Positions 36,924 through 59,316 of a DNA stretch of 64,000 nucleotides are shown in pieces (the first letter of the stretch is position 1; each line of letters starts with the position of its first letter). The notes below the pieces were generated by a model. It was not told the origin of the DNA, searched no databases, and was given only the letters and a program-made list of their open reading frames with translations. The stretch lies in NCBI RefSeq assembly GCF_015221995.1, contig NZ_JADFFM010000001.1:1922001-1986000 (forward strand). The letters are read 5' to 3'. The position numbers and the translations under genes are program-made. This stretch comes from Mucilaginibacter boryungensis. GTDB taxonomy: Bacteria > Bacteroidota > Bacteroidia > Sphingobacteriales > Sphingobacteriaceae.

Positions 36924-36953
36924 GGCAACTATACTGCAAAAATTGCCGTAATA
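36924..36953 (+). promoter_or_regulatory. ECF-type promoter P1 (ABC exporter)
   Basis: GGCAACT, N16, CGTAATA; 32 bases before the ATG at 36986. One of ten copies of the same bipartite element in this locus; the only one with T at the seventh -35 position. Confidence 0.8.
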
Positions 36954-36985
36954 ACTTTAAGTAATACCAATGCTTAAAGCATTTT

Positions 36986-38650
36986 ATGAGGCAATTCATA
37001 ACGTCACTATTTAAAATACTAACCCCTAACGAGAAAAACCGTTTGTTTATAATGGCCGGTTTCGACCTGCTGATGGGTTTGGCTGACGTGGTTTTTCTGA
37101 TAGCTTTGGTATTTATCATCCGGGTGTATACCAGTGGTGTACCGGTTTCTTCCTCCCTAACTTATTATAGCGCGCTTGCTAATGCCAACCCCATAACAGT
37201 TACCGGGTTATTCCTGTTGCTGTTTTTTATTAAAAATATGGCTGGCGTATGGCTGTCAAAAAAACAACATAGTTTTGTTTATAGTGTAGCATCCCGCTTG
37301 TCGGGCGACCATATAAACAACTACTTACAAGGAAGTTATACCGATTTTGTTAATGTAGATTCATCAGTCCGTATCAGGCAAATAGGGCAGGTGCCTATTG
37401 AATTTGGTCATTACGTACTAACCAATTTTCAGCAGATCATTGCGCAGGGGGTATTGATCTTTTTCACCGTTGCGGCAATACTGCTGTATCATCCGGTTTT
37501 ATTTGTTTTATTACTTATACTGTTATTTCCACCGGTTGTATTGCTGGGCTGGTTTATTAAAGGCAAGCTTAAAAGCGTCCGCGCGCAAATAAAAGAATGC
37601 AGCGCCAGGGTGATCCAATATTTACAGGAATCATTATCAGGTTATGTGGAGAGTAATATCTATCATAAAAACAGCTTTTTTGTAAACCGTTATTCCCGGC
37701 AACAATCTCAGCTAAACCAAACACTGGCCGCACAGCAAACCTTACAAGGCATGTCATCGCGGTTTGTAGAGGTTTTTGCCCTGCTGGGCTTTTTTATCCT
37801 TATTGTTATCAATAAATGGTTTGGCGGTAAAACAACTATCGATGTGCTGACCATCGGCATATTTATGGCGGCAGCCTACAAAATTATTCCGGGCGTGGTA
37901 AAAATACTAAACTGTGCTGGGCAAATGCGTACGTATAGCTTTACGTTACAGCAACTATCCGGTACACATTCTACTACCATGCCCGAACCTGCAATAGCCG
38001 ATACCCCCATTCAAAATATCAGCTTTAGTAATGTAGTATTTGGGTACAATGGCAACCCGGTAATCCGCGACTTAAGTTTTGAAGTAAATACCGGCGATTT
38101 TGCGGCTATCTCGGGTATATCCGGGCGTGGGAAAACTACTATTATTAACCTGTTATTAGGGTTTTTAAAGGAAGATGCAGGCACTATTCTTATAAATGAT
38201 AAACCCGTTGATATGAAGCAGCGGCAAGTCTATTGGAACAGGATAGTTTACGTAAAGCAGCAAAGCTTTTTTATGAACGACACCATCTTAAAAAACATCA
38301 CCCTGAGTGACGAAGGCTATAATGAAGATAATTTAAACGAAGCCTTGCACATTAGCGGGTTAGACATGTTTTTAAACGAATACCCCGAAGGAGTGCATAA
38401 AATGATACACGAACACGGTAAAAATATTAGCGGCGGCCAGCGCCAGCGGATAGCTTTAGCACGTGCCCTTTATCACGAGTGTGATCTATTGATCCTGGAC
38501 GAACCCTTCAGTGAAATAGATGAAGCTGCCGGGCGGCAAATACTCAACAGGATCAGGAATGTTAAGCACGATAAAATAGTGCTATTTATAACGCATAATA
38601 AAACCAGTTTATCATTTTGTAATAAAACCATATCACCATATGCTGCCTAA
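36986..38650 (+). CDS. ABC exporter, fused permease and ATPase
   Basis: Half-transporter of 554 residues. An N-terminal six-helix exporter domain (about 1-320) is joined to an ABC ATPase with Walker A GISGRGKT (377-384), signature ISGGQRQRIALARAL, Walker B LLILDEPFSEID and a H-loop histidine (FITHNKT). It works as a homodimer in the inner membrane and could flip a lipid-linked glycan, a lipid or a small modified product. It is the first gene of the polysaccharide locus, driven by promoter P1, and overlaps the next gene by 11 bases. Confidence 0.92.
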   Translation: MRQFITSLFKILTPNEKNRLFIMAGFDLLMGLADVVFLIALVFIIRVYTSGVPVSSSLTYYSALANANPITVTGLFLLLFFIKNMAGVWLSKKQHSFVYSVASRLSGDHINNYLQGSYTDFVNVDSSVRIRQIGQVPIEFGHYVLTNFQQIIAQGVLIFFTVAAILLYHPVLFVLLLILLFPPVVLLGWFIKGKLKSVRAQIKECSARVIQYLQESLSGYVESNIYHKNSFFVNRYSRQQSQLNQTLAAQQTLQGMSSRFVEVFALLGFFILIVINKWFGGKTTIDVLTIGIFMAAAYKIIPGVVKILNCAGQMRTYSFTLQQLSGTHSTTMPEPAIADTPIQNISFSNVVFGYNGNPVIRDLSFEVNTGDFAAISGISGRGKTTIINLLLGFLKEDAGTILINDKPVDMKQRQVYWNRIVYVKQQSFFMNDTILKNITLSDEGYNEDNLNEALHISGLDMFLNEYPEGVHKMIHEHGKNISGGQRQRIALARALYHECDLLILDEPFSEIDEAAGRQILNRIRNVKHDKIVLFITHNKTSLSFCNKTISPYAA

Positions 38651-39761
38651 GCCTCCCATATTGGTTATACTAACGCCCGGTTTCCCTGAAAGCGAAGCCG
38701 ATACTACCTGCCTGCCTTTACAGCAGGCCCTGGTAAAAGCTATTAAGGAAGATCACCCGGGCATAAATCCGCAGGTGCTATCGTTTGAATACCCGTTCAA
38801 AGCCCGTAATTACACATACCATGGTGTCCCGGTACAGGCATTTGGTGGCAGGAACAAAGGGAAATTGTTCAGGCTATATAACTGGCTAAAGGTGTGGATG
38901 GCTTTGACCAAATTGAAAAAAGATTACGAAATAATTGGGCTGCTCAGCTTTTGGTTAGGCGAATGTGCTTTTATAGGCGAGCAGTTTGCAAGGCTGCACC
39001 GGCTTAAACATTATTGCTGGATGCTGGGACAGGATGCGCGGTTCGATAATAAATACTTTACCCTTGCAGGGATAGATAGCAACAGACTGGTGGCCATATC
39101 TGATTTTTTGGTAAGTAATATGGAAACCAATTATGATGTCACTCCTAAACATGTGATACCAGGTGGGATTGATCAATCGAAGTTTGAAGAGAACGATTGT
39201 GAGCGTACTATTGATATAATTGGGGTAGGCTCCTTGATCCCGCTAAAACAATATCATCTTTTTTTAGATGTAATTTGCCGGTTAAGACGCCGTTTTCCCA
39301 ATATTAAAGCTGTAATATGCGGCGCAGGCCCCGAGCGGGCCAGGTTAATGCGTATGATCTATAAGCTGAAAATACAAACAAATGTTACCCTTGTTGAAGA
39401 ACTGCCACACCCGCAGGTGTTGGCCATGATGCAGCAATCTAAAGTGCTTTTGCATACCAGTAATTATGAAGGCCTGGTAATGGTAGCACCCGAAGCTTTG
39501 GCTGCCGGAGCAAAGGTGGTAAGCCTGTTGCGCCTGATGGATAAAGATATCCCGAACTGGGAGATAGCTGAAAATACGCATGATGCAGCAGAAATAATTA
39601 CCGGTATATTAACTGATGCCAATGTTGAATATACACCCGTAGTACCTTTTAAAATTGAAGATACCGCCGCGCAGTTTGTAAAACTTTATACCGAAAGCAA
39701 TGTAGTAGCTATTTCGCGGAAACGGCTGGCAATAGCATTAAAAGATAAGGTAGCCTTATAG
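38640..39761 (+). CDS. Glycosyltransferase family 4-like
   Basis: A 373-residue GT-B glycosyltransferase. The C-terminal nucleotide-sugar half is recognisable (IDIIGVGSLIPLKQYHLFLDVI, AVICGAGPERARL, LLHTSNYEGLVMVAPEALAAGAKVVS), including the EGLVMVAPEALAAG loop with the catalytic-site glutamate. The N-terminal half is less conserved and binds the acceptor. Its start overlaps the ABC exporter gene. Its last 76 bases overlap the 3' end of the convergent glycosyltransferase gene. Confidence 0.9.
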   Translation: MLPKPPILVILTPGFPESEADTTCLPLQQALVKAIKEDHPGINPQVLSFEYPFKARNYTYHGVPVQAFGGRNKGKLFRLYNWLKVWMALTKLKKDYEIIGLLSFWLGECAFIGEQFARLHRLKHYCWMLGQDARFDNKYFTLAGIDSNRLVAISDFLVSNMETNYDVTPKHVIPGGIDQSKFEENDCERTIDIIGVGSLIPLKQYHLFLDVICRLRRRFPNIKAVICGAGPERARLMRMIYKLKIQTNVTLVEELPHPQVLAMMQQSKVLLHTSNYEGLVMVAPEALAAGAKVVSLLRLMDKDIPNWEIAENTHDAAEIITGILTDANVEYTPVVPFKIEDTAAQFVKLYTESNVVAISRKRLAIALKDKVAL

Positions 39762-40795
39762 TGCGCTAATGTATATTCCCTTTTTGCAGAGGTATCTATC
39801 TGTTGGGTTTGTATTAAAGCGGTTAACACCCCCCCTGCATCGCCCGGCTCGAATAGCATGCCGCATTTGCCATTATCGGTTATCATTTTAAAGGAATCGA
39901 TAGCAGTAACAATAGGTATACACCCGCAAGACATAGCTTCGCACAAGGCCGTTCCGCTGCCTTCATAAAAAGAGCACGAAATAATATAATCGGCGCTGTT
40001 ATACCAGTACAAAAGATCGGCATGCGGCACCTGGCCAATTAATTTGATATTGTTTTTTTGGCTCGGATGTTTGGCTAACTCTATCAGGATATCCTCCAGC
40101 AATTCATCGGTTTGATAGATCATATAAAGTTTTGCGAGTGGCTGAACTGAAGCATATTGTAAAAAAGCCCTTACAGCGGTTAACGGATCTTTGTTTGCAT
40201 TTAAACGGCCAACCCAAAGAAATACCGGCTGGCCTGCAACTGCTGTTTTAGATTGGGCAATTTCTTTATTGATAACTTTAAAATCTGACGATACTTCCAT
40301 TACCTCGTGCAGCTTTTTAGCTGATGCCAGGTTGCCTTTTTGTACCCAGCGCAACCCCATTGGTTTTGAAGCAAACATATAAGCATGCACGCCACGGTCG
40401 GCTATGCGCTGCAGCTGTTTTTTTATACCGGTAAATGGCTGTTCTGCATGGTTTTGGACTATGATTTTTACATGCGGGCTTAACATTAAACGCAATTGTA
40501 TTATCTGCAAAGGAAAATGCAAACCCTGTATAACTACTACATCAGGACTAAGGCTACGGATAAACCGGTGAAGTTTGGACGGAAAACGCCGTTCATGATT
40601 GCTGTAACGTTTAAAATAATATTTAACCCCGTTGTTTACGGCTTCGCCTTCATAATCAATCTGTTCAATACTAATCACCGTGTCGGTTACGGCCAGCGCT
40701 TCCAGGGTGCCCAAATAAAAACCGATATGCTTTATCCAGGCATGCGGGTCGGTAAATCCCGGGGAATATACATAGCTGGCAAAAACAAATTTCAT
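39686..40795 (-). CDS. Glycosyltransferase family 4-like
   Basis: A 369-residue GT-B enzyme with VFLWVGRLNANKDPLTAVRAF, IKLIGQVPHADLLYWYNSADYIISCSFYEGSGTALCEAMSCGCIPIV as the donor-binding core. It transfers a sugar from a nucleotide donor; donor and acceptor are unknown. It is the last gene of the minus-strand unit methyltransferase - amidohydrolase - glycosyltransferase starting at promoter P2 and overlaps the convergent plus-strand glycosyltransferase by 76 bases tail to tail. Confidence 0.9.
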   Translation of the reverse strand: MKFVFASYVYSPGFTDPHAWIKHIGFYLGTLEALAVTDTVISIEQIDYEGEAVNNGVKYYFKRYSNHERRFPSKLHRFIRSLSPDVVVIQGLHFPLQIIQLRLMLSPHVKIIVQNHAEQPFTGIKKQLQRIADRGVHAYMFASKPMGLRWVQKGNLASAKKLHEVMEVSSDFKVINKEIAQSKTAVAGQPVFLWVGRLNANKDPLTAVRAFLQYASVQPLAKLYMIYQTDELLEDILIELAKHPSQKNNIKLIGQVPHADLLYWYNSADYIISCSFYEGSGTALCEAMSCGCIPIVTAIDSFKMITDNGKCGMLFEPGDAGGVLTALIQTQQIDTSAKREYTLAHYKATLSFNAIASRFREIATTLLSV

Positions 40796-40814: not shown

Positions 40815-41957
40815 TTAACTGGCGGTAACCGGAAATTGTATATGGTGATGGTAGGCTTGTATCTGCTTCATTAATCCGGGTAAATCGCCATATACATACT
40901 TGTATACCTTGTTTATCATTATCTTACTATAACGGCTTTTATCAATACTATCCAACTGACTGTAAAGCATTTCATCAAACAGGCGGATATTCCCCTTGCT
41001 CATCACCAACAGAATGTCTGCCGGGTCTACATCAAACAAGCTGTTCATGGTGCTTTGACCGTTCTTTAAACGCGCCACCACTAAATCGGCATCGTTGCCG
41101 GGCGCAATTACACCGCTGTTTATGCCCCAAACCTTTGCCGGGTTGGTGGTTAAATTGGCCAATAGTTCTTTGTCCGACAGGTAGGTGGTTTTCCGGGCCT
41201 GGCGTATATGCTCCCAAATATTCCAGTCCCCGGTAAGGGTTGAATCCGTTCCGAAAATAATAGGCACATAATCTTTAAGCCGGTGAACAGGCGCGGTAGT
41301 GCCCAACAGGAAATAGTTTGATTGCGGGCACCATACCAGAGCTTTAAAGCTTCTGGCTTGTTTGGGGGTCATAGCTACCCCATGTATGCCAATTAATTCA
41401 CGATGCAATAAATTCCAATGTATCAATTGTTCAATTTCATCGCAGGCAGCCTCGTCTGTGCCTTCGCCGGTATGTATAGCTACCCGGGCAGTTAATTTTA
41501 AGGGGTTATTCAGGCGGCGTTTCCAATGTTTTTCAAACCGTACCGAATGCAGCGACTGGCAATTTTGCATCACATTAATTGGTACGTCTTTTAATTCCAG
41601 TTCGTTACCGTGATTTACCACAGTTGTAACGCCGCAAAGCATGTTTTTATAAACACCCCATGCAGTACGCAAAGCAAGGGGGATATTCAATATGGCATCT
41701 ATCTCCGGCTTATAGTAACGGTGTATATAATTACCCCACTCGGTATAATTATGATAGATATGGTGCCCTAATTGGGGGAAAAGGTTAAAGTCTAAATGAT
41801 CGTGCGAGTTAATTAATCCAGGAAACACAATAGCATTATCAAAAACAAGTTTCGGGTGGTGTGCAGCGTGCACAGCGGTATCAGTTATCAGCCCATGGCT
41901 GATACTGATATTGCCGGCTTCATTACTGCCAACCCGATGAACATTGCTTAGTATCAT
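40815..41957 (-). CDS. Amidohydrolase-superfamily protein (deaminase-like)
   Basis: A 380-residue metal-dependent hydrolase of the type that deaminates aminated rings (the MTA/SAH deaminase or cytosine deaminase branch). Metal-site motifs are SHDHLDF (His52, His54), a histidine in IHTGEGTDE, IHGVAM, and GTDSTLTGDWNIWEH with the catalytic aspartate. The small beta-sandwich part is formed by both termini (LSNVHRVG, VIAPGNDADLVVARL). It is unusual in a polysaccharide locus and suggests processing of a small precursor or a modified sugar or base. Its ATG overlaps the stop of the methyltransferase (ATGA). Confidence 0.85.
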   Translation of the reverse strand: MILSNVHRVGSNEAGNISISHGLITDTAVHAAHHPKLVFDNAIVFPGLINSHDHLDFNLFPQLGHHIYHNYTEWGNYIHRYYKPEIDAILNIPLALRTAWGVYKNMLCGVTTVVNHGNELELKDVPINVMQNCQSLHSVRFEKHWKRRLNNPLKLTARVAIHTGEGTDEAACDEIEQLIHWNLLHRELIGIHGVAMTPKQARSFKALVWCPQSNYFLLGTTAPVHRLKDYVPIIFGTDSTLTGDWNIWEHIRQARKTTYLSDKELLANLTTNPAKVWGINSGVIAPGNDADLVVARLKNGQSTMNSLFDVDPADILLVMSKGNIRLFDEMLYSQLDSIDKSRYSKIMINKVYKYVYGDLPGLMKQIQAYHHHIQFPVTAS

Positions 41958-42697
41958 GCCTCATGTTTAAAATGGAGACCGTAAATAATCGGCATTCCTT
42001 TAAATTTATCGTAAACGTGTAATGCGTTATTGCTTTCGTAGTAATGTTTTAATGTTTCATCAATAACTATTTGTTCCCTGTGTATTACTTTCCATTTTTT
42101 TGAACCTAATACAGCTTCTATTTCATCCAGCCGGTGTACAAAATTGCGCACTGCAATATGGCCATTGCCATGCTTAAACGTACGTTGCCCGCCCTTAGCC
42201 AAAGCATCCGGATGAAAGTCGGTGATCAGTATATCACCGCTGTTTTTAACAATGCGGCACCAGTTAAGCAAGGCATCGTCCAGGTTTTTAATATGCGCCA
42301 TGGTTAGGGTAGATACAACAACGTCAAAGGCATCGGTAGGTACATTCGGCATGCGGTCGCTAATTATCTGGTGGGCTTCCGATTCGGGGAACTTTTGTTT
42401 CAGTTTGCTCAACATCCCCACAGAAACGTCAAAGCCTGCCAGTTCCAAAGGTTGGCGTCGCATTATTTTAGGCCAATGACGCCCTGTTCCACAACCAATA
42501 TCGGCAATTTTCTTTCCTTTTATATCGGTACGCGCCAGCATGCGGCTAAATATGATCTCATCCAGATCGAGCATTAAGTTGCCCGGCTGGTTATCGTAGT
42601 TTTCAGACCATATATCGTATGCCGTGCCCGCCTCGGTTTCGGGGATGTAGGGGTTTAATAAACGCTTGGGTATAAACCGTCTTAATTGTTGCAGCAT
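41954..42697 (-). CDS. Class I SAM-dependent methyltransferase
   Basis: A 247-residue methyltransferase with motif I KKIADIGCGTGRHWPKIM, an aspartate at the end of strand 2 (ELAGFDVSVGML) and DVVVSTLTMAHIKNLDDAL. UbiE/Methyltransf_11-like fold. The substrate is unknown. First gene of the minus-strand unit, with promoter P2 ending 23 bases before the ATG. Confidence 0.88.
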   Translation of the reverse strand: MLQQLRRFIPKRLLNPYIPETEAGTAYDIWSENYDNQPGNLMLDLDEIIFSRMLARTDIKGKKIADIGCGTGRHWPKIMRRQPLELAGFDVSVGMLSKLKQKFPESEAHQIISDRMPNVPTDAFDVVVSTLTMAHIKNLDDALLNWCRIVKNSGDILITDFHPDALAKGGQRTFKHGNGHIAVRNFVHRLDEIEAVLGSKKWKVIHREQIVIDETLKHYYESNNALHVYDKFKGMPIIYGLHFKHEA

Positions 42698-42720: not shown

Positions 42721-42750
42721 GAATACGGTTTAACGATTGTAATGGTTGCT
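42721..42750 (-). promoter_or_regulatory. ECF-type promoter P2 (methyltransferase-amidohydrolase-GT unit)
   Basis: On the minus strand: AGCAACC, N16, CGTATTC, 23 bases before the ATG at 42697. It is back to back with P3. Confidence 0.82.
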
Positions 42751-42774
42751 TAGCAGGCTTTATTTACGCACAAA

Positions 42775-42804
42775 GGCAACCTGCATAGCCCAGGCGGCGT
42801 AATT
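42775..42804 (+). promoter_or_regulatory. ECF-type promoter P3 (radical-SAM operon)
   Basis: GGCAACC, N16, CGTAATT, 33 bases before the ATG at 42838. Divergent from P2 with 24 bases between the two -35 elements. Confidence 0.85.
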
Positions 42805-42837: not shown

Positions 42838-44337
42838 ATGAACAAGATCATATTATTTAACCCCCTTAGCGCTGTTGCCAAGCACCGTATACCCAACTCG
42901 TTAATGAATATTGCCGCATCGGTAGAAGGTAAGTATGACTGGGTTATTGTTGATGGCAATTGCGAGACCGACCCATTACAGAAAATACAAAGCTACCTGT
43001 ATACAGGCGAATATAAATATATAGGCGTTACCGTAATGCCCGGGCCGCAATTAAAGCAGGCCACACCGGTGTGTAAAGCTATTAAAGCTAAAAACCCGCA
43101 GGTGAAAGTAATTTGGGGGGGCTATTTTCCATCTACCCAGCCCGATACTGTGCTGTGTTCGGGCTATGTGGATTTTATTATTAACGGCCCCGGCGATCAC
43201 GCTTTCCCCTTGCTGATAGATGCATTGGAAAATGGCACGCCCTACGAGTTCATAAAAAACATTATTTACAAAACCGATACCGGTATTGTTAAAAATGGTA
43301 AAGAAGATTTGATAGACCAGGAAACCCTGCCGCCATTACCTTACGATAAACTGGATACGATGTATCCGATAAAAAAATATCTGGGCCGCACTTACCTGGG
43401 CGAAAAAACGCTGGCTTACCATTCAAGCATAGGTTGCCCATTCACCTGTTCATTTTGCGCGGTAGTGCCTATTTACGAGGCCAGGTGGAAAGCCAAATCG
43501 GCACAAACCGTTTATAAGGATATTAAATACATTAAAGATAAATGGGGCGCCGATGCTATTGAATTTCATGATAATAACTTTTTTGTATCGGAAAAACGTG
43601 CGGTTGAATTTGCCAGGCTGATAGCGCCTGAAAAAATGTCGTGGTGGGGCATGGCGCGTATTGATACCATGGATAAATTTAGCGACGCATCGTTACAAGC
43701 GATCAGGGACGGCGGCTGTAAGATCATATTCTTTGGTGCGGAAAGCGGCAATAACGATATTCTGGAACAACTGGATAAAGGCGGTACCCAAACCGGCGAC
43801 CAGATCATCCGTTTTGCCGAGCGGTTGAAGAAGTTTGATATCATCCCCGAATACTCGTTTGTATTAGGCACACCCGCACCGACACCCGAAAAGGTACAGG
43901 CGCAGATTGATTTTGAAATAGAATTTATTAAGAAAGTAAAAGCGGTAAACCCCAATACCGAAATAGTAATTTATACCTACAGTCCTGTACCGACTGAAGG
44001 CTCGGAACTGTTTAAGCAGGTTTTGGATGCCGGCTTTAAATTCCCGCAGACACTGGAAGATTGGGTTAGCCCGGCCTGGGAAAATTTTGATATGCGCAAA
44101 AACCCTTTAACGCCATGGCTTACGCCTGAGATGATAAATAAGATAAGAAATTTTGAGACGGTGCTGAATGGGGTATACCCAACCGTAACTGATATTAAAC
44201 TTAACGATTTAAAACGCCGGTCGATACGGTTTGTGTCTGCAATAAGGTATAAAGCAAGTTTGTACAAATACCCATACGAGATAAAGCTATTACAACGGTT
44301 TTGGAAATACCGCCAGCCGGAGATACAGGGTTTTTAG
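42838..44337 (+). CDS. B12-binding-domain radical SAM protein 1
   Basis: A 499-residue class B-like radical SAM enzyme. Residues about 1-140 form a Rossmann-like cobalamin-binding-type domain (YIGVTVMPGPQLKQA, VIWGGYFPSTQPD). The radical SAM domain holds the 4Fe-4S cysteines 200, 204 and 207 (GCPFTCSFC), then FHDNNFFVSEKRA and IIFFGAESGNNDIL. Relatives do radical methylation or other difficult C-C and C-H chemistry; the substrate is unknown. First gene of a five-gene radical-SAM/methyltransferase run. Confidence 0.92.
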   Translation: MNKIILFNPLSAVAKHRIPNSLMNIAASVEGKYDWVIVDGNCETDPLQKIQSYLYTGEYKYIGVTVMPGPQLKQATPVCKAIKAKNPQVKVIWGGYFPSTQPDTVLCSGYVDFIINGPGDHAFPLLIDALENGTPYEFIKNIIYKTDTGIVKNGKEDLIDQETLPPLPYDKLDTMYPIKKYLGRTYLGEKTLAYHSSIGCPFTCSFCAVVPIYEARWKAKSAQTVYKDIKYIKDKWGADAIEFHDNNFFVSEKRAVEFARLIAPEKMSWWGMARIDTMDKFSDASLQAIRDGGCKIIFFGAESGNNDILEQLDKGGTQTGDQIIRFAERLKKFDIIPEYSFVLGTPAPTPEKVQAQIDFEIEFIKKVKAVNPNTEIVIYTYSPVPTEGSELFKQVLDAGFKFPQTLEDWVSPAWENFDMRKNPLTPWLTPEMINKIRNFETVLNGVYPTVTDIKLNDLKRRSIRFVSAIRYKASLYKYPYEIKLLQRFWKYRQPEIQGF

Positions 44338-44356: not shown

Positions 44357-45073
44357 ATGCAAAGCCCCGAATTAATTGAAACGGATTTTGAGCAGCTTTA
44401 CCTTGCCGTAAGGGCATATGAAGGGCGTGTATATACCGATGCCGAAGTTAGTCGGTTACCGGATGTTGATACTACCCATAAATACTACAACGAGTGGCTT
44501 ATACGTAAGCATTCAGCTAAAAGATTGATAAGTTATTTACAAAAGAAAAATAGGCCGTTGGCTATATTGGAAGTAGGTTGCGGTAATGGCTGGTTAGCGG
44601 CAAAACTGGCTGATATCCCCGGTGCAAAAGTGACAGGGATTGATATTAACCAGGTAGAAATAAGCCAGGCTATGTGGGTTTTTAAAAAAGATAACCTGCA
44701 GTTTGTTAATGATAGTTTGGATGGCGATGTGATCGGTCATATGCGTTTTGATGTCATCGTTTTTGCGGCGGTACTACCTTATTTCTCCGCTGCGCAAGCT
44801 ATCCTTAAAACGGCGCTCGGTCGTTTAAATCCGCATGGAGAAATACATATTATCGATACGCATTTTTATGGGCCGGGCGAAGTTTACGGAGCCATAAAGC
44901 GTTGCGCTGACTACTATCAGGCAATGGGGTTTCCACAAATGGCAGATCTGTACCATCACCATACTTTAAATATATTAACCGGTTTTAACTACGAGGTTTT
45001 GTTTGATCCGGGCAGCATTTTTAACCGAGTGGCCAAAAGAGGGCCGTTCTATTGGATCTGTATAAAGAAATAG
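44357..45073 (+). CDS. Class I SAM-dependent methyltransferase
   Basis: A 238-residue methyltransferase with motif I LAILEVGCGNGWLAAKLADI, the acidic end of strand 2 (KVTGIDINQ) and FDVIVFAAVLPYFSA. The acceptor is unknown. It lies 19 bases after the first B12 radical SAM gene and four bases before the second radical SAM gene, so it belongs to the same transcript from P3. Confidence 0.88.
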   Translation: MQSPELIETDFEQLYLAVRAYEGRVYTDAEVSRLPDVDTTHKYYNEWLIRKHSAKRLISYLQKKNRPLAILEVGCGNGWLAAKLADIPGAKVTGIDINQVEISQAMWVFKKDNLQFVNDSLDGDVIGHMRFDVIVFAAVLPYFSAAQAILKTALGRLNPHGEIHIIDTHFYGPGEVYGAIKRCADYYQAMGFPQMADLYHHHTLNILTGFNYEVLFDPGSIFNRVAKRGPFYWICIKK

Positions 45074-46136: not shown

Positions 46137-46166
46137 AGCAACCAGTATACTTTAATTAACGTAATT
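46137..46166 (+). promoter_or_regulatory. ECF-type promoter P4 (third radical-SAM gene)
   Basis: AGCAACC, N16, CGTAATT. The -10 ends only six bases before the GTG at 46173, so the message would be nearly or fully leaderless. Confidence 0.8.
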
Positions 46167-52810: not shown

Positions 52811-54464
52811 GAGACGTCATGTTAACTAATTTTTCACTTTCTTTTATATTTAAAAAAAGCAGCAGCTCAAAAACTATCATAATAGATAATTGCTCAAACC
52901 AGTAATCTGTAATCAACACCATGGCCAGGAAAAAAAGTAGTAGCAAACCGTAGGTCAGTTGTTTATACCGCTTTAAAAAGTACCCCAAATAGCAAATAAA
53001 AAATGCCAGCAGGCCTAATAAACCATATTCGGCCAGTAACTGATCATATACCGAAGCAGGGTTGTTACTGATGGAATGAAAGCCTTCCTCTTTGCTGAAA
53101 TAATGCATATATAGGTCCAAATGATTGCTTAAAAAAGCGGGATGGATATAAGTAAGATCTTTGGGATAGCCGCCATTCAATCCTAATCCCGTTGCGCGGA
53201 AAGCAATTTTTGATGAAAAACATCCGACGCCAAACCCCGCTATTATACCTTGGGGGTGTTGCTTTATATAATCGATAGTTTGTACCGCACCTGCTATTTT
53301 TCCTGGCAAATTTGAACGGTAGTTGCTACTGCCCGATACAGGCAGGTTTTGCTTATGGTCGTTGATAAAACGAAGTAGTTTTACTCTGTCGGGTTCCGGG
53401 ATGTTGCTTACGTTAAGTTGGCCGGCATTAGTATCTGGTAGTGGGATAATTATACCCCCGTCTTTCATGAATTTTAGCGGCAATAATGGTATATAACGCC
53501 GATAACCATACTTATTTCTGATAGCCGCATTAACACTATCCAAATAATGCAAGGCAAATTTCTGTCTTCTTTCATCAAATGTTAAAAGGTTATCGGGCTT
53601 TTGCGTGATAGCTAGATTGGTGGGCGTGGGTGTTACATAATCCTGGTGTTTTATATGCAGGCTTCGGTAAATAACCTGGGTAAGGTATACTTTATTTTGC
53701 GGCGATACCTTGATCATAAATATACCGAAAAGCATAATGCAAACAACTATTATACTTTTTTGGTCGCGGCTGCTTTTGAAAGCAAATAAAGCCAGCAGTA
53801 TAATTATTAACATTATGGTTATGCAGTTGTTGTAGGTAAGCATCAGCATACACATGCATAGCATACTCATTACCGTGTTCCTTTTAAATAAAAAATAGAT
53901 CACCCCAAACGAGTTTAGGATAGCGCCGGTGGGGGCAATATCAAACGTAACTCCTTTTATAAAATCGCCGGTATTGATGAAGTATTTCTGATAATCCCCC
54001 CTGAAGGTATAGGGGTTAATATCGTGTATCCTGAAAATAATAAACACTAGGTTAGCTAAAGAAAATATGGCATTAATGATAAAAAAAGCAATAATAGTTT
54101 TATGGACAGTTTGGGTATCGGCCCGCTCAACCATCAGTTTAACCTGGTGCATGGCCAGCAATGCCAGTACCCAAAAAGCAATCCCGGTAAAAAATATCGG
54201 CATATAATGATGGGCCTGGTAATTTTGATTAACAATCAAGCCAGTAAAAGCGATGGGAATAATCAGCAAATAAAACAGCGGCAGCCTGGAATTTTTGAAG
54301 CTGAGTTTAAACTTAAGATCAAATTGCAGCAGGTATATTAATACTAAGGCCGCAATTTTAATAGGCAGCTTAATGTTTAAAAACAGCAGCAGGAACAGGA
54401 GTAGTTTCCAATCAACATTGGCCGTAAGTTTTTTAAAGTTTAATGTAAGCTGTTTAATCATCAA
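52800..54464 (-). CDS. Wzy-like polysaccharide polymerase / O-antigen ligase-like membrane protein
   Basis: A 554-residue protein with about ten membrane helices and a long soluble loop (about 260-420) before the last helices, the topology of repeat-unit polymerases. The loop-to-membrane segment IIAGFGVGCFSSKI resembles the GxGxGxF motif of the O-antigen ligase family. It heads the unit polymerase - GT2 - GT4 - ligase and is preceded by promoter P6. Having two polymerase/ligase-like proteins in one locus suggests one polymerises and the other ligates. Confidence 0.8.
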   Translation of the reverse strand: MMIKQLTLNFKKLTANVDWKLLLFLLLFLNIKLPIKIAALVLIYLLQFDLKFKLSFKNSRLPLFYLLIIPIAFTGLIVNQNYQAHHYMPIFFTGIAFWVLALLAMHQVKLMVERADTQTVHKTIIAFFIINAIFSLANLVFIIFRIHDINPYTFRGDYQKYFINTGDFIKGVTFDIAPTGAILNSFGVIYFLFKRNTVMSMLCMCMLMLTYNNCITIMLIIILLALFAFKSSRDQKSIIVVCIMLFGIFMIKVSPQNKVYLTQVIYRSLHIKHQDYVTPTPTNLAITQKPDNLLTFDERRQKFALHYLDSVNAAIRNKYGYRRYIPLLPLKFMKDGGIIIPLPDTNAGQLNVSNIPEPDRVKLLRFINDHKQNLPVSGSSNYRSNLPGKIAGAVQTIDYIKQHPQGIIAGFGVGCFSSKIAFRATGLGLNGGYPKDLTYIHPAFLSNHLDLYMHYFSKEEGFHSISNNPASVYDQLLAEYGLLGLLAFFICYLGYFLKRYKQLTYGLLLLFFLAMVLITDYWFEQLSIMIVFELLLFLNIKESEKLVNMTSHAS

Positions 54465-54533: not shown

Positions 54534-54563
54534 CATTACGTTGCGTTGCTTAAATAGGTTGCT
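54534..54563 (-). promoter_or_regulatory. ECF-type promoter P6 (Wzy-GT2-GT4-ligase unit)
   Basis: Minus strand: AGCAACC, N16, CGTAATG, 69 bases before the ATG at 54464. Confidence 0.82.
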
Positions 54564-54663: not shown

Positions 54664-54693
54664 GGCAACCAGTGCGATGAAAAAAATGTATTA
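54664..54693 (+). promoter_or_regulatory. ECF-type promoter P7 (Wzx-GT4 unit)
   Basis: GGCAACC, N16, TGTATTA, 25 bases before the TTG start at 54719. It has a T for C at the first -10 position. Confidence 0.7.
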
Positions 54694-54718: not shown

Positions 54719-56140
54719 TTGCCAAAAAATAAACTATCCACCAGGTTTTTTTCATCCGGATTGCAATCTGTAGCAGTACAGGTATTGGGCAGTGTGTTCT
54801 TTTATTTAGTATCGGTTTATTTTACCAAGGAAACCTTCGGTATGATCAGCTGGATGAACGCGGTTTCATTGTTTATTACCACCATATTAGGGTTAGGGCT
54901 TGAACAGGTGGTTATCCGGCGTATAGCGGCATCCAGCCGGTCAGATTGGGCGGCGGCGGCGTTCTTTTTGCACTCGCTCACAGGTTTCGCTATAACATTG
55001 GCTGCATTGTTACTATTGAATTCCATTCTGGGGGATAAAAACCCTGTGTACAAATACCTACCATGGTTTTTCGCGGCGCAGGGCCTTATATTTACCGGTA
55101 CCCCCCTGAAGCAGTTTTTAAACGCGAAGGAGCAATTTACTCCATATGGCATTATCGCCTTTATCAGCAATAGCAGTAAGGTGGCGGCAACTGTTATACT
55201 TCAGCAAACGCATCAACTCACTATTAATACCGTTATAGTTGTGCTTGTTAGCGCGGCGGGTTTTGAGTTAGTGGCCTTGCTTACCTATGTTTTAATAAAC
55301 ACCAGCTTCAGGTTTAAATTGCGGTTAAAGGCTTATGTTAAGCTGGTGAAGGAATCGTCGGCACAATATATTTCGGTAATATTTGACATGAGCCTTTCGC
55401 GTATGGATTGGATATTGCTGGGGATAATGACCACCAACGTAATGCTGGCCGATTACAGTTTCGCTTACCGGGCTTTCGAGCTGGCCCGTTTGCCCATCCT
55501 AATTATAGCTCCCATTATTATGCCGCGTTTATCACGGTTAATGGCAGCTAATCATAAACCCGACATTGCAAACCGGCAATTGATAAATGCTTTTAATTCG
55601 GTTGAAATGTTTTTTGCTATGCTGATACCTTTATCGCTTAATATTTTGTGGGTGCCCGTGGTCAGCTTCATTACAAAGGGTAAATATGGCGACACTAATT
55701 CTATGCAATTTCTCATTCTATCGTGGGGTATCCCACTGCAGGTTTTTATTAATCTGCTATGGTCGTTAAGTTTTGGGGCTAAAAAGTACAAGCAAGTTAC
55801 CCTTATAACTATTTATTGCGCTGTTACAAATATGGTGCTAAACCTTGTTTTCATTCCCAAATTTGGCGGACTGGGTTCCGCTATTGCGTTTTTAGGGACT
55901 ACCTTATTACAATGCGGCCTGTTGTATAAACTTGTTTACCGGCAAATTATGGCCATATCATTAAAGCCGTTTTTTCTGTTTGCCACTATTGCCGCCGTGG
56001 TTTATTTATTGGTTTTATGGCTAAATACCTCATTTTTTATAAGCCTGCCAATTGCTTTGGTAGTTTATATTTTAGGGGGTATTTTAAGCAGGCAAATAAC
56101 CAGGCAGCACCTGTATAACTTTAAAAATTTTTTATCCTGA
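54719..56140 (+). CDS. Oligosaccharide flippase, Wzx-like
   Basis: A 473-residue polytopic protein of the polysaccharide transport (PST/MOP) superfamily with about twelve to fourteen helices (STRFFSSGLQSVAVQVLGSVFFYLVS; SRMDWILLGIMTTNVMLADYSFAYR; FGGLGSAIAFLGTTLLQ). It moves lipid-linked repeat units across the inner membrane. The start is a TTG; an upstream in-frame ATG at 54677 is closed off by a stop. It overlaps the downstream glycosyltransferase gene by one base (TGATG). Confidence 0.9.
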   Translation: MPKNKLSTRFFSSGLQSVAVQVLGSVFFYLVSVYFTKETFGMISWMNAVSLFITTILGLGLEQVVIRRIAASSRSDWAAAAFFLHSLTGFAITLAALLLLNSILGDKNPVYKYLPWFFAAQGLIFTGTPLKQFLNAKEQFTPYGIIAFISNSSKVAATVILQQTHQLTINTVIVVLVSAAGFELVALLTYVLINTSFRFKLRLKAYVKLVKESSAQYISVIFDMSLSRMDWILLGIMTTNVMLADYSFAYRAFELARLPILIIAPIIMPRLSRLMAANHKPDIANRQLINAFNSVEMFFAMLIPLSLNILWVPVVSFITKGKYGDTNSMQFLILSWGIPLQVFINLLWSLSFGAKKYKQVTLITIYCAVTNMVLNLVFIPKFGGLGSAIAFLGTTLLQCGLLYKLVYRQIMAISLKPFFLFATIAAVVYLLVLWLNTSFFISLPIALVVYILGGILSRQITRQHLYNFKNFLS

Positions 56141-57342
56141 TGAACATACTATACCTGTGCGATGAGTATCCTCCCGGTCAGCACGGGGGCATAGGCAGTG
56201 CGGTACAGTTAATGGCCCGGCAAATGGCGGCAATGGGCTATACGGTTGTGGTTGCAGGGTTGTACACCCCGGGTTACGGCGGCGAAGATGAATTTTGGGA
56301 TGAAGGGGTAAAAGTTTACCGCTTCCGCCTGGAGCTTGACGGAAGATTTTTTGAAAAGCGCAGCCGACTAATGGTACGCATAGTTACCCGGTTACTTAAA
56401 GATACCGGACTTATGCAACGGGATATCCGTAAAAGACTGCCTGAATTTAAAGACCGGCTGGAAGAAATTATTGACCGGTACCATATCGACCTGGTTGAAA
56501 TGCCTGACTATAATGATTATATAAAGTTTTGTACATCGTATCTGCCCTTTCCTAAACTATCGGTGCCTGTGATAGTGAAGTTGCATGGCTCAATAACCTA
56601 TACCAGGCAGGTAACAAAACTACCGCCCGCACATATTATTAAAATGGAGCAGGATATTTTAAATCAGGCGGTGGCGGTTGTTGGTGTAAGCGAGTATATG
56701 GCCCGGGAAAGCGCTAAATATTTATCGTACACAAAAGCTATTGAGGTAATATATAACGGAATAGATACGGATATTGCTATTGATATAACAAGAAATACAG
56801 AGCAAGTTATTTATACCGGTACCCTTGTAGCCTCGAAAGGGATATATCAATTAGCCAAGGCATGGAACCTGGTAAATAAAGCCGTCCCCGGTGCACGGTT
56901 AATAATTTGCGGCAGGGGAGACCAGAGAAAGGTAATTTCTTATTTATCAAACGAGGCTAAAAAAACAGTGACCTTTACCGGGCATATTACTAAACAGGCT
57001 TTATTTAAGCATTTATCATCTTCGGTAATAAGCGTGTTCCCTTCCTATTCCGAAGCTTTTGCCCTGGCGCCGTTAGAAGCTATGGCTTGCGGTACAGCCG
57101 TCATTAATACCAAGCGCACATCAGGACCTGAATTAATTGAAGATAAGATAGATGGCTTATTGGTAGATCCGGATGATGTTGAACAAATAGCTTCCTCTAT
57201 CATCTCTCTTTTAAATAACCCTGACGTATGTAAAACCCTGGCAGTAAGGGGTAATAAAAAAGTAAAGGCGCAGTTTGATATCAAAACTATAGCCCAACAG
57301 CATGTTGAGTTTTACAAACGTATATTACAGCTTGATTTATAA
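56140..57342 (+). CDS. Glycosyltransferase family 4
   Basis: A 400-residue GT-B enzyme with the N-terminal DEYPPGQHGGIGSAVQLMARQM, VKLHGSITYTRQ, and the donor half VIYTGTLVASKGIYQLAKAW, LIICGRGDQR, VISVFPSYSEAFALAPLEAMACGTAVI. The E(x)7E motif is present (EAFALAPLE). Coupled to wzx by a one-base overlap and convergent with the glycosyltransferase gene at 57346. Confidence 0.93.
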   Translation: MNILYLCDEYPPGQHGGIGSAVQLMARQMAAMGYTVVVAGLYTPGYGGEDEFWDEGVKVYRFRLELDGRFFEKRSRLMVRIVTRLLKDTGLMQRDIRKRLPEFKDRLEEIIDRYHIDLVEMPDYNDYIKFCTSYLPFPKLSVPVIVKLHGSITYTRQVTKLPPAHIIKMEQDILNQAVAVVGVSEYMARESAKYLSYTKAIEVIYNGIDTDIAIDITRNTEQVIYTGTLVASKGIYQLAKAWNLVNKAVPGARLIICGRGDQRKVISYLSNEAKKTVTFTGHITKQALFKHLSSSVISVFPSYSEAFALAPLEAMACGTAVINTKRTSGPELIEDKIDGLLVDPDDVEQIASSIISLLNNPDVCKTLAVRGNKKVKAQFDIKTIAQQHVEFYKRILQLDL

Positions 57343-57345: not shown

Positions 57346-58164
57346 CTAAGACGTTTGCTTTATTTGCGGGTACATGTATAACAGGTTATCGCTTTGGTAA
57401 GTTTTTTGGATAGGCATACTTTCTAACTGATACAGGTGATGGTACTTAAGCCAAGTGTGTCTGGCGGTATTTTTGGCAATGCACCATCCTTCCCAACCAT
57501 CTAAAAAGCCCAGGTATAAGCAATAGTTCCGCAAGAAATTAAAAGCAGGGGAAAGGTATAATTTAATAAAATTACTTTTTTTACCAATGTGGTAGTATTT
57601 TTTTGCGCTCAGCAAAGCATAGTGTAAAGCCTTTTCCCGGCACTCTTTCTCGTTTTTAACCGAATAATGATGTATAAAACCCGCAAGGGTTTTTTGTTTG
57701 GTGCCTTTGGGGAATAGCAAAGTTTCGTGTACGGGCAATTCCGACCATTTTACCGTACCGCGATGGAATAAGCGCACGTGATGGTCGCGGCCCCAACTAC
57801 CGAAACTGATCAGCTTATCGCCAAAATAAGTTTTAAACCTGATGTTATAAACAGTATCAGGGTTGTTATAATGCAGGTGATGGAGCGCTGTAACCAGCTC
57901 TTCGTCAATTATTTCATCCGCATCAATACTTAATATCCAATTGTACCGGGCGCAGGCTATGCCTTTGTTTTTGTTAGCGCCGTAACCGTCCCAATTTTTT
58001 TGGAATACCCGGCATCCGTATTCAGTTGCTATTTTGCCGGTATCATCGCTGCTGCCATTATCAATAATTACAATATCATCGGTAATTAACCGAGCCATTG
58101 CAACACTGCGTTGAATAACGTCAGCCTCGTTCTTTGTAATAATGACAACTGAAACAGGAACCAT
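57346..58164 (-). CDS. Glycosyltransferase family 2, WaaE/KdtX-like
   Basis: A GT-A enzyme of about 272 residues starting MVPVSVVIITKNEADVIQRS, with IVIIDNGSSDDTGKIA, the RYNWILSIDADEIIDEEL metal site and GTVKWSELPVHETLLF, which are typical of the lipopolysaccharide-core beta-1,4-glucosyltransferase (WaaE/KdtX) subgroup. Start at the ATG 58164; a TTG eleven codons upstream is weaker. It has its own promoter P8. Confidence 0.9.
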   Translation of the reverse strand: MVPVSVVIITKNEADVIQRSVAMARLITDDIVIIDNGSSDDTGKIATEYGCRVFQKNWDGYGANKNKGIACARYNWILSIDADEIIDEELVTALHHLHYNNPDTVYNIRFKTYFGDKLISFGSWGRDHHVRLFHRGTVKWSELPVHETLLFPKGTKQKTLAGFIHHYSVKNEKECREKALHYALLSAKKYYHIGKKSNFIKLYLSPAFNFLRNYCLYLGFLDGWEGWCIAKNTARHTWLKYHHLYQLESMPIQKTYQSDNLLYMYPQIKQTS

Positions 58165-58221
58165 AATGAAGTTAGATTTTATTAGATAGTTAAGCAAATG
58201 AAAGACCGCTTATCTATTTAA

Positions 58222-58273: not shown

Positions 58274-58462
58274 TTATTTTTTATTTTGCTCGTCCCACGC
58301 TTTAAAATTAGCCGTTTTACCCTCTACGCTATTATTACATGCTGCATTGGGGCATAACACAATCCAGGTATAGGCATCCTGCGCAACAACAGGTCTGCGG
58401 CCGCATTTTATACAATTAGCTACCATAAAGTTATCCTGTATTTTATAAGTGGTTACACTCAT
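58274..58462 (-). CDS. Small four-cysteine (zinc-ribbon-like) protein
   Basis: A 62-residue protein with Cys17, Cys20, Cys37 and Cys42 (NCIKCGRRP, VLCPNAACNN), arranged as a treble-clef or zinc-ribbon knuckle pair. No signal peptide. Function unknown. Its own P9 promoter belongs to the same family as those of the polysaccharide operons, so it is probably part of the regulon, perhaps as a small regulator or chaperone. Confidence 0.72.
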   Translation of the reverse strand: MSVTTYKIQDNFMVANCIKCGRRPVVAQDAYTWIVLCPNAACNNSVEGKTANFKAWDEQNKK

Positions 58463-58492: not shown

Positions 58493-58522
58493 TAACACGT
58501 GTAAACGGCGGTTACGGTTGCT
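58493..58522 (-). promoter_or_regulatory. ECF-type promoter P9 (four-cysteine protein gene)
   Basis: Minus strand: AGCAACC, N16, CGTGTTA, 30 bases before the ATG at 58462. Divergent from P10. Confidence 0.8.
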
Positions 58523-58601
58523 TACAAATTATTCAAATACGGCTTCATAAATTGATTAGGAATATCTAAATAGTTCCCTGCGAAAAATAAATTATAACCA
58601 A

Positions 58602-58631
58602 GGCAACCTTTTAAACCATGTTTCCGTGATA
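58602..58631 (+). promoter_or_regulatory. ECF-type promoter P10 (sigma factor gene, autoregulation)
   Basis: GGCAACC, N16, CGTGATA, 46 bases before the sigma factor ATG at 58678. Confidence 0.82.
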
Positions 58632-58677
58632 ATGATATTAATGATCGATAAACGCATTACTTAAGGGGATTCCCCAT

Positions 58678-59316
58678 ATGACAGAGGAAGATTTACATCA
58701 ACTGATCAGAGGCTGCGCTAAGCAGGATAGAAAATGCCAAAAAATGCTGTACAAAGCTTTTTATGGCTTTGCTATGGGTATTTGCTTAAGATATGCGGGT
58801 AACAGGGACGAGGCTGCAGAAGTGATGAACCAGGGATTTTTTAAAGTATTTACACATATAGACAGGTACGATCATGATCGACCTTTTAAAGCATGGCTGG
58901 GCCGCATTATGATGAATGCTTCTATAGACCATTACCGGGCCAACTTGAAAATGGCCTATACGGATGACCTGGATAAAGCTGAACATATTAGCGACGGGGA
59001 ACTGGCCGATAAAAAATTAAGTTACGATGAGCTTTTAGCCATGGTACAATTGTTACCCCAGGCCTACAGAACAGTATTTAACTTATTTGCAATTGAAGGT
59101 TATGGGCATGATGAAATTGGCGAAATGCTTGGCATTAGCGCCGGGACATCAAAATCAAACCTGCACAAAGCACGACAAAAACTAAAACAAATGATATTAA
59201 AAGCCGACCAGCCATATACAGACCGTGGCGACGGTAAAATGACCTATTCATCTGTTGTAGCAATAAATTCAACAGATATGAACGGGGTATTCTTTAACAG
59301 GGGAATCAGGATATGA
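58678..59316 (+). CDS. ECF-family RNA polymerase sigma factor
   Basis: A 212-residue sigma-70 family factor with only regions 2 and 4. Region 2 is at about 20-95 (MLYKAFYGFAMGICLRYAGN, DEAAEVMNQGFFKVF, RPFKAWLGRIMMNASIDHYR). Region 4 is at about 118-170 (LLPQAYRTVFNLFAIEGYGHDEIGEMLGISAGTSKSNLHKARQKLK). The C-terminal 35 residues form an extra tail of unknown role. Its gene overlaps the beta-barrel/membrane partner gene by four bases (ATGA). The promoter P10 in front of it matches nine others in the adjacent polysaccharide locus, so it is the best candidate for the sigma factor that reads them all. Confidence 0.95.
   Translation: MTEEDLHQLIRGCAKQDRKCQKMLYKAFYGFAMGICLRYAGNRDEAAEVMNQGFFKVFTHIDRYDHDRPFKAWLGRIMMNASIDHYRANLKMAYTDDLDKAEHISDGELADKKLSYDELLAMVQLLPQAYRTVFNLFAIEGYGHDEIGEMLGISAGTSKSNLHKARQKLKQMILKADQPYTDRGDGKMTYSSVVAINSTDMNGVFFNRGIRI

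What the first reader, a model, noticed from the sequence alone, without database searches (positions are those of the whole stretch)
36924..58678. Ten copies of an RGCAACY-N16-CGTAAT promoter define an autoregulated ECF-sigma regulon for the whole polysaccharide locus
Reading the gaps of the locus gives ten bipartite elements. The -35 part is GGCAACC (five times), AGCAACC (four times) or GGCAACT (once); the spacer is exactly 16 bases in all ten; the -10 parts are CGTAATA, CGTATTC, CGTAATT (twice), CGTCATC, CGTAATG, TGTATTA, CGATATA, CGTGTTA and CGTGATA. Positions: 36924+, 42721-, 42775+, 46137+, 49453-, 54534-, 54664+, 58222-, 58493-, 58602+. Each points at a gene start 6-72 bases away, on both strands. 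They cover the ABC exporter, the amidohydrolase unit, the radical-SAM operon (two promoters), the nucleotidyltransferase, both polymerase/flippase units, the last GT2, a four-cysteine protein and the ECF sigma gene itself. AAC in the -35 and CGT in the -10 are established features of ECF promoters. I saw no such element in the intergenic regions outside the locus. That the sigma factor at 58678 reads them is inference.
Basis: partly seen in the sequence, partly recalled or inferred. Interest (0 to 1): 0.95.

Follow-up and report, generated by a model that had tools for sequence, protein, structure and literature searches.

The report
Sigma-factor regulon for a polysaccharide locus
In a bacterium of the genus Mucilaginibacter, each gene group of a 22-kb locus predicted to build a surface polysaccharide begins with the same promoter-like signal, which the locus's own sigma factor likely reads while an anti-sigma protein predicted to span both membranes would hold it back, so one outer-membrane sensor would switch the whole assembly line.

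Summary
All ten elements are present with a 16-base spacer, and a weight matrix trained only on relatives ranks them 1-10 in the window.

Comparison supports one regulon. The element lies upstream of the sigma gene in 69 of 75 distinct orthologs fetched and 0 of 22 other sigma genes of the genome. In 38 related loci, 143 of 167 matches sit at gene starts; the reversed pattern gives 0. Loci 0.5-1.8 Mb from the sigma gene keep the sites. A glycosyltransferase that left the locus in two species has its own site there; 29 of 29 other copies fetched have none.

[quoted passage not shown] In another genus a related locus lacks the motif while that genome's sigma gene keeps it, so the locus was probably captured by an older sigma/Dma regulon.

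Limits: the rSAM2 and Cys4 sites have no exact counterpart in relatives. That this sigma reads the sites, and that Dma restrains it, is inferred; no transcript was measured.

The parts
36924..36952 (+). promoter-like element before ABC exporter + GT4a
   Evidence: matrix rank 8 in the window; counterpart in 2 of the 7 scored loci that show ABC
42722..42750 (-). promoter-like element before MT1-amidohydrolase-GT4b
   Evidence: 19 counterparts in relatives
42775..42803 (+). promoter-like element before rSAM1-MT2-SPASM
   Evidence: rank 1; 20 counterparts
46137..46165 (+). promoter-like element before rSAM2-MT3
   Evidence: no exact counterpart in 38 related loci
49454..49482 (-). promoter-like element before nucleotidyltransferase
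   Evidence: 31 counterparts, -10 CGTCAT in 24
54535..54563 (-). promoter-like element before Wzy2-GT2a-GT4c-WzyC
   Evidence: 24 counterparts
54664..54692 (+). promoter-like element before flippase Wzx-GT4d
   Evidence: rank 10; 1 counterpart, L061
58223..58251 (-). promoter-like element before GT2b
   Evidence: 25 counterparts, -10 CGATAT in 20
58494..58522 (-). promoter-like element before four-cysteine protein
   Evidence: no exact counterpart
58602..58630 (+). putative autoregulatory promoter element before sigma-Dma
   Evidence: exact in 69 of 75 distinct orthologs fetched
36986..38650 (+). ABC exporter (MsbA/PglK-like)
   Evidence: Pfam ABC_tran; NCBIfam hits below cut-offs
38640..39761 (+). 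glycosyltransferase GT4a
39686..40795 (-). glycosyltransferase GT4b
40815..41957 (-). amidohydrolase
41954..42697 (-). methyltransferase MT1
42838..44337 (+). B12-binding radical SAM enzyme rSAM1
   Evidence: found in 92 of 149 genus genomes
44357..45073 (+). methyltransferase MT2
45078..46127 (+). radical SAM/SPASM protein
46173..47642 (+). B12-binding radical SAM enzyme rSAM2
47636..48457 (+). methyltransferase MT3
48460..49380 (-). nucleotidyltransferase-like protein
   Evidence: weak Polbeta/NTP_transf_2, both below cut-off
49520..50761 (-). Wzy_C/O-antigen ligase-like protein
50739..51851 (-). glycosyltransferase GT4c
51851..52810 (-). glycosyltransferase GT2a
52800..54464 (-). hydrophobic membrane protein, called Wzy2 here; no Pfam match
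   Evidence: polymerase role is a guess from position and sequence
54719..56140 (+). flippase Wzx
   Evidence: Polysacc_synt/MurJ
56140..57342 (+). glycosyltransferase GT4d
57346..58197 (-). glycosyltransferase GT2b
58274..58462 (-). 62-aa four-cysteine protein, no Pfam match
58678..59316 (+). ECF sigma factor (regions 2 and 4)
59313..60590 (+). Dma-type putative anti-sigma factor: helices, membrane helix 50-69, tether 79-229, 8-strand barrel 235-422
   Evidence: model, fold match, PF13568 in some homologs

Best explanation
The ten elements are promoter-like sequences, most of them conserved in relatives, that stand before each predicted transcription unit of the locus and are likely read by the ECF sigma factor encoded beside them, which the overlapping gene's Dma-type protein is predicted to hold inactive at the inner membrane. 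Inferred cycle: the outer-membrane barrel of the Dma-like protein senses an envelope or surface cue; a pull or a cleavage passes through the disordered tether and the single membrane helix; the short cytosolic head lets go of the sigma factor. The sigma factor then directs RNA polymerase to GGCAACC-N16-CGTNNT promoters and switches on exporter, glycosyltransferases, radical-SAM and methyl-transfer enzymes, flippase and polymerases together. It would also raise its own and Dma's synthesis, a positive feedback with a built-in brake. Shown: the elements, their spacing, their conservation at the same genes, the predicted fold. Inferred: transcription units, sigma recognition, Dma inhibition, the signal, and the polysaccharide product.
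For: Ten sites against 0.33 expected; a matrix trained on 137 sites of relatives ranks exactly these ten on top in the window. Sharp spacer: GGCAACC-Nk-CGT counts 152 at k=16 and 0-6 at each other k from 8 to 26 in 39 segments, 780.6 kb. Upstream of the sigma gene in 20 of 20 genomes first fetched and 69 of 75 distinct orthologs; upstream of 0 of 22 other sigma genes of this genome. In 38 related loci 143 of 167 matches lie within -20..250 bases of a start (128 strictly intergenic; 11.3% of that sequence is intergenic), reversed pattern 0. Loci far from the sigma gene keep sites: G008 about 1.6 Mb, G036 about 1.8 Mb, the polymerase half in G046 about 1.8 Mb, the radical-SAM half in G010 about 0.46 Mb, G004 and G076 on other contigs. 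A glycosyltransferase that left the locus in G000 and G035 has its own site; 29 of 29 other copies fetched have none. Within the genus rSAM1 goes with the sigma ortholog: 67 of 105 good genomes with it, 0 of 12 without, Fisher 1.6e-5. Dma plan: compared with PMC13088901 (passages and two sections).
Against: No expression data. Three second-copy sigma genes (L232, L240, L242) lack the element; L055, L186 and L245 have a variant. The rSAM2 and Cys4 sites have no exact counterpart in relatives. One stretch of ordinary sequence (L122) scores 16.4, above the weakest of the ten sites (54664, 16.3). Sigma-bearing genomes without rSAM1 average 5.45 matches against 2.16 control, more than one autoregulatory site explains. 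In other genera 6 of 18 sigma genes examined have no GCAACC-N15..17-CGT near the start. A related locus in G168 and an rSAM1 gene in G264, both other genera, show no site, so the link is not universal. Absence of sigma-A-like patterns from the gaps is weak evidence: that pattern hits only three gaps in the rest of the window. The Dma head's binding is untested and its model confidence moderate (10-residue means 53-84 up to residue 70).
Confidence: 0.83

Rival explanations
1. The elements are ECF-type promoters, but another or several ECF sigma factors of the genome read them, and the local sigma gene is only one of the targets.
For: The genome has 22 further matches to sigma proteins, and in Flavobacterium psychrophilum one CGT-box promoter class may be read by several ECF factors (PMC9723704, passages).
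Against: None of the other 22 sigma genes carries the element. Among 117 good genus genomes the locus gene rSAM1 occurs only with this sigma. Sigma and motif stay together in 12 of 18 sigma genes of other genera (10 upstream, 2 just after a probably over-long start call) and, with one changed base, in Dyadobacter.
Confidence: 0.1
2. The elements are operators for a DNA-binding activator or repressor, not sigma recognition sites; transcription starts from other promoters.
For: A conserved bipartite sequence with a fixed spacer can also be a dimer site; no start was mapped.
Against: The halves are neither inverted nor direct repeats of each other; 16-base spacing with AAC and CGT boxes fits ECF promoters; 143 of 167 matches face a gene start.
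Confidence: 0.05
3. The downstream protein is not an anti-sigma factor but an envelope protein merely co-transcribed with the sigma gene.
For: It matches no Pfam model, anti-sigma ones included, and binding cannot be tested here.
Against: Overlap with the sigma gene; a Dma-like gene directly after the sigma gene in 18 of 18 short stretches from other genera (L250-L267); the four-part plan described for Dma proteins.
Confidence: 0.12
4. The repeats are chance, or copies of a mobile repeat scattered in the locus.
For: None found.
Against: Spacer columns carry 0.01-0.41 bits, box columns 1.0-2.2 bits except one -10 column (0.12); chance expectation 0.33.
Confidence: 0.01

Closest known systems
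Das1/Dma1 and Das2/Dma2 of Bacteroides thetaiotaomicron (ECF21 sigma with dual membrane-spanning anti-sigma; PMC13088901: abstract, passages, introduction and discussion read)
   Same: Sigma gene beside a gene for a protein with N-terminal sigma-binding head, membrane helix, long disordered tether and C-terminal beta-barrel; genes near dma2 are among the most upregulated when dma2 is lost.
   Different: Known phenotypes are vesicle production and utilisation loci; the word 'motif' does not occur in that paper's main text. Here the pair is tied to a polysaccharide-building locus by ten promoter-like elements. Homology to the Bacteroides proteins was not tested.
ECF factor BT0248 and capsule loci of B. 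thetaiotaomicron (PMC12596196, passages read)
   Same: An ECF sigma linked to capsular polysaccharide genes in Bacteroidota; that paper also cites ECF regulation of other capsule loci.
   Different: BT0248 is reported as a negative influence on CPS6, known from expression modules; the passages show no promoter motif for it and no Dma partner. Here one sigma is predicted to activate every unit of the locus directly.
AlgU-MucA control of alginate in Pseudomonas (recalled, not searched)
   Same: Autoregulated ECF sigma with membrane anti-sigma controls a polysaccharide.
   Different: Different sigma group and anti-sigma; as recalled, mainly one biosynthetic operon promoter, not a site before each unit of a locus.
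SM6 promoter class of Flavobacterium psychrophilum (PMC9723704, passages read)
   Same: ECF-type promoters with a CGT box at -10 in Bacteroidota, an ECF sigma/anti-sigma pair among the targets.
   Different: Targets are type IX secretion and envelope genes; the responsible sigma factor was left open.

Membership tests
ECF (group IV) sigma factors | sigma regions 2 and 4 only | tested here: met
   Sigma70_r2 residues 24-89, Sigma70_r4_2 117-169; no region 1 or 3 model among the matches
ECF (group IV) sigma factors | promoters with AAC at -35 and CGT at -10 | tested here: met
   AAC in 10 of 10, CGT in 8 of 10 sites; that this sigma reads them is inferred
ECF (group IV) sigma factors | transcription of its own operon | not testable with these tools
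   element upstream of the sigma gene in 69 of 75 orthologs; no transcript measured
ECF21 group | membership by ECF21 profile or tree | not tested
   no ECF21 profile at hand; only the general NCBIfam superfamily TIGR02937 passes its cut-off among the hits shown
Dma (dual membrane-spanning anti-sigma) | encoded beside the cognate ECF sigma | tested here: met
   59313-60590 overlaps the sigma gene by 4 bases
Dma (dual membrane-spanning anti-sigma) | N-terminal cytosolic sigma-binding domain | tested here: inconclusive
   helices 3-18 and 28-40 in the model, moderate confidence; binding not tested
Dma (dual membrane-spanning anti-sigma) | single transmembrane helix | tested here: met
   model helix 50-69 with a hydrophobic sequence; no topology program was run
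Dma (dual membrane-spanning anti-sigma) | long disordered tether | tested here: met
   pLDDT under 50 over most of residues 79-229
Dma (dual membrane-spanning anti-sigma) | C-terminal outer-membrane beta-barrel | tested here: met
   eight long strands 235-422, block pLDDT 76-96; Foldseek finds NspA (TM by target 0.80) and OmpA; some homologs list PF13568; on re-scan P0006 is above and L112's Dma just below the cut-off, and the window's protein has no Pfam match
Dma (dual membrane-spanning anti-sigma) | sequence homology to Bacteroides Dma1/Dma2; sigma inhibition | not tested
   Bacteroides sequences were not fetched; inhibition needs an experiment
Wzx/Wzy-type polysaccharide locus | flippase, polymerase/ligase and glycosyltransferases together | tested here: met
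   Polysacc_synt, Wzy_C and six GT genes
Wzx/Wzy-type polysaccharide locus | initiating phosphoglycosyltransferase and Wza/Wzc export parts | tested here: not met
   none among the 20 proteins scanned; not searched elsewhere in the genome, so the product stays a prediction

The most novel reading that the evidence does not exclude
A protein that spans both membranes senses the outer membrane or the cell's own glycan coat and directly gates a complete polysaccharide assembly line: an older sigma/Dma regulon (with YceI, DUF5777 and Lipoprotein_15 neighbours) captured a polysaccharide locus promoter by promoter, and each captured gene keeps its own fixed -10 word (sigma CGTGAT, GT2b CGATAT, NTase CGTCAT, Wzy2 CGTAAT), a gene-by-gene strength code read by one sigma factor.
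Probability: 0.4. Interest if true: 0.85.

Novelty: new variant of a known kind. Interest (0 to 1): 0.7.

Why it matters
Dma proteins were described only recently, and PMC13088901 leaves open what Dma2 senses and whether Das2 acts directly or indirectly. Here a Dma-like pair comes with a readable promoter code and a defined set of targets, so its direct regulon, signal and promoter grammar can be tested together. Loci that moved, split, reached Dyadobacter, or still lack the sites in another genus are natural experiments on how a bacterium wires a pathway to an existing sigma factor.

Tried and rejected
A first look at sigma upstream regions ignored the orientation of minus-strand loci and was redone; its sigma counts are not used (its reading of L143 and L173 is, and repeats it). 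Chance and mobile-repeat origins were rejected. The sigma tree (69 rows chosen from those at hand) has 7 changes of the locus label, at least 5 forced by well-supported branches, so it does not settle one capture against several; long branches make it a sketch. Papers: the searches listed no report that I recognised of this motif or of a Dma pair driving a polysaccharide-building locus; (GGCAACC with sigma factor and bacteroid) listed two papers, seen as listings only. PMC8999054 was opened for passages and held nothing on ECF21. Subscription papers, among them the ECF classification papers and the first Dma1 paper (recalled), are not in that library, so an ECF21 promoter consensus may already be in print.
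Full report
OBSERVATION. The pattern RGCAACY-N16-YGWNWT occurs 11 times in the 64-kb window, against a mean of 0.33 in shuffled sequence. The box words and the 16-base spacer are as described. The whole genome (4.88 Mb, 3 contigs) has 36 matches against 13 for the reversed pattern. Of the 25 outside the window, 20 were read in context: 14 inside ORFs, 3 non-coding without an ORF downstream in the piece fetched, 3 promoter-placed; 5 were not read.

INDEPENDENT TEST. A matrix was built from 137 distinct sites of relatives only, using the two boxes, and run over the window. The top ten scores are exactly the ten sites (16.3-24.7); the next is 15.9 at 4394. In 120 kb of six own-genome stretches, three of them fetched because they hold a match, the best scores are those three known sites: 24.65 before a DUF1972 glycosyltransferase, 21.6 before a small lipoprotein-like ORF, 18.4 before a LysR-like ORF (LysR by eye); then 16.4 and 16.2, the first just above the weakest of the ten.

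ANATOMY. By gene order the ten sites begin these units: ABC-GT4a; MT1-amidohydrolase-GT4b; rSAM1-MT2-SPASM; rSAM2-MT3; nucleotidyltransferase; Wzy2-GT2a-GT4c-WzyC; Wzx-GT4d; GT2b; a four-cysteine protein; sigma-Dma. That covers the 21 genes called from 36986 to 60590. No sigma-A-like TTG-N17-23-TANNTTTG pattern lies in the gaps (two hits are inside genes); but the pattern hits only three gaps in the rest of the window, so this is weak evidence.

THE SIGMA FACTOR AND ITS PARTNER. The 212-aa protein has sigma regions 2 and 4. The next gene overlaps it by 4 bases. Its product has helices 3-18 and 28-40, a membrane helix 50-69, a disordered stretch 79-229 and an eight-stranded barrel 235-422; the barrel matches NspA and OmpA in the PDB, and some homologs list PF13568. 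This is the four-part plan given for Dma proteins in PMC13088901. Sources name homologs as Mucilaginibacter, which gives the genus.

CONSERVATION AT THE SIGMA GENE. In 20 of 20 genus genomes the exact element begins 74-86 bases before the called sigma start. Over 75 distinct orthologs fetched it is exact in 69; one has a -10 variant (L055), one a 17-base spacer (L186), one a changed first base (L245, Dyadobacter frigoris), and three second copies lack it (L232, L240, L242). None of the 22 other sigma genes of this genome has it within 250 bases.

CONSERVATION AT THE TARGETS. In 38 related loci (L061-L075, L077, L103-L108, L123-L138) there are 167 exact matches; 143 lie within -20 to 250 bases of a gene start and 128 are strictly intergenic, while 11.3% of the sequence is intergenic; the reversed pattern gives 0. 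Targets: NTase 31, GT2b 25, Wzy2 24, rSAM1 20, sigma 20, MT1 19, ABC 2, Wzx 1, one 305-aa ORF. Some genomes enter by two overlapping or separate pieces, so these are not all independent. The other 24 matches (listed) are sites in the MT1/rSAM1 gap swallowed by an over-long ORF call or 259-382 bases from the called start, matches inside genes, and matches at the edge of a piece. Against the reading: no exact counterpart was found for the rSAM2 and Cys4 sites.

SPACING AND -10 WORDS. GGCAACC-Nk-CGT occurs 152 times at k=16 and 0-6 times at any other k from 8 to 26 (39 segments). Targets keep their own -10 words: sigma CGTGAT 18 of 20, GT2b CGATAT 20 of 25, Wzy2 CGTAAT 20 of 24, NTase CGTCAT 24 of 31; the link of target and word exceeds all 2000 shuffles (relatedness adds to it). 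Pooled spacers carry 0.01-0.41 bits per column. The window's sites have the same words for these four targets.

NATURAL EXPERIMENTS. Where the locus sits far from the sigma gene the sites remain: G008 (about 1.6 Mb), G036 (about 1.8 Mb), G046 (polymerase half about 1.8 Mb away), G010 (radical-SAM half about 0.46 Mb away), G004 and G076 (other contigs); the MT1/rSAM1 pair alone in G090, G025 and G038. A DUF1972 glycosyltransferase lies among the locus genes in the relatives compared by position (for example G008, G017, G019, G022, G036, G045, G053). In G000 it is on another contig and in G035 about 1.95 Mb away, and in both it has its own exact site, 66 and 82 bases before its start; the other 29 copies fetched have none. 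Dyadobacter frigoris, of another class (Cytophagia, Mucilaginibacter), carries a 70% identical sigma with part of the locus and exact sites before GT2b, Wzy2 and NTase.

CO-OCCURRENCE. Among 117 good genus genomes, rSAM1 is present in 67 of 105 with a sigma ortholog (best E 1e-76 or better) and 0 of 12 without (best E 1e-48 or weaker); Fisher 1.6e-5. Three incomplete assemblies (61-80%) have rSAM1 but no ortholog-grade sigma. Mean matches to RGCAACC-N16-CGTNWT: 9.64 with rSAM1 (control 2.24), 5.45 with sigma but no rSAM1 (2.16), 2.25 without sigma (1.67). The middle group is higher than one autoregulatory site explains; at least one of these genomes keeps a locus glycosyltransferase 7 kb from the sigma gene (G042), and further targets are possible but unidentified.

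AN OLDER REGULON AND A LOCUS WITHOUT SITES. Of 18 sigma genes from other genera (4.6-kb stretches, one shorter), 18 are followed directly by a Dma-like gene; 10 have GCAACC-N15..17-CGT upstream, 2 just after a probably over-long start call, and 6 have none (L250-L252, L257, L262, L266; the last two show a one-base variant). Five (L253-L256, L261) also have it facing a divergent gene, scanned in one case as Lipoprotein_15 and alike by eye in the others; YceI and DUF5777 genes follow Dma in L112, a Mucilaginibacter without rSAM1, with ORFs of like size in others. rSAM1 was found in 27 of 301 family genomes, only 2 of them outside the genus. In one, G168, a related run (ABC, GT4a, amidohydrolase, MT1, rSAM1, MT2, rSAM2, MT3, NTase) has no site at all, while the sigma gene of the same genome, on another contig, has GGCAACC-N16-CGTGTC at its start; the other, G264, has rSAM1 without sites and no sigma match. 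This fits capture of the locus by an older sigma/Dma regulon; loss in G168 is the alternative, and the tree does not tell how often it happened. These last calls were made on re-checking; they raised the probability of the novel case from 0.35 to 0.4 and changed nothing else.

PRIOR WORK. In B. thetaiotaomicron an ECF factor, BT0248, is reported to influence capsule locus CPS6 negatively, and other capsule loci are cited as ECF-regulated (PMC12596196, passages), so an ECF link to capsule genes in Bacteroidota is not new in itself.

VERDICT. Sigma recognition, Dma inhibition, the cue and the glycan product remain inference. It is a new variant of a known kind: an ECF sigma/Dma pair whose predicted direct targets are a complete polysaccharide-building locus.

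Noticed in passing
L117:9582-10781 (G000:C2:689581-690780): Eleventh canonical site, before a DUF1972 glycosyltransferase that in relatives sits among the locus genes; the gene moved out in G000 and G035 and carries the element there.
   Followed up: yes
L270 (G168:C92) and L272 (G168:C96): Another genus has a related radical-SAM/ABC/NTase run without any site, while its sigma gene keeps the element: a possible state before capture.
   Followed up: partly
L118:9827-9855 - and L116:9439-9467 +: Two further promoter-placed matches in the genome, before a 133-aa lipoprotein-like ORF (no Pfam match) and a LysR-like ORF; possible extra regulon members.
   Followed up: partly
L253-L256, L261 (other genera): Sigma-Dma pair with a divergent Lipoprotein_15-like gene that also faces the element: an apparent older regulon.
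   Followed up: partly
L245 (Dyadobacter frigoris): Part of the locus with sigma and sites in a genus of another class, suggesting horizontal transfer of the wired locus.
   Followed up: partly
L232, L240, L242: Second copies of the sigma gene (63-67% identical) without the element; possibly paralogs with another regulon.
   Followed up: no
window 40815-48457: Two B12-binding radical-SAM enzymes, a SPASM radical-SAM protein, three methyltransferases and an amidohydrolase in a polysaccharide locus: an unusual sugar or lipid modification seems likely.
   Followed up: no
window 30822-34580: Pectate lyase gene next to a DUF7133/cytochrome c protein, upstream of the locus and without the element.
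   Followed up: no
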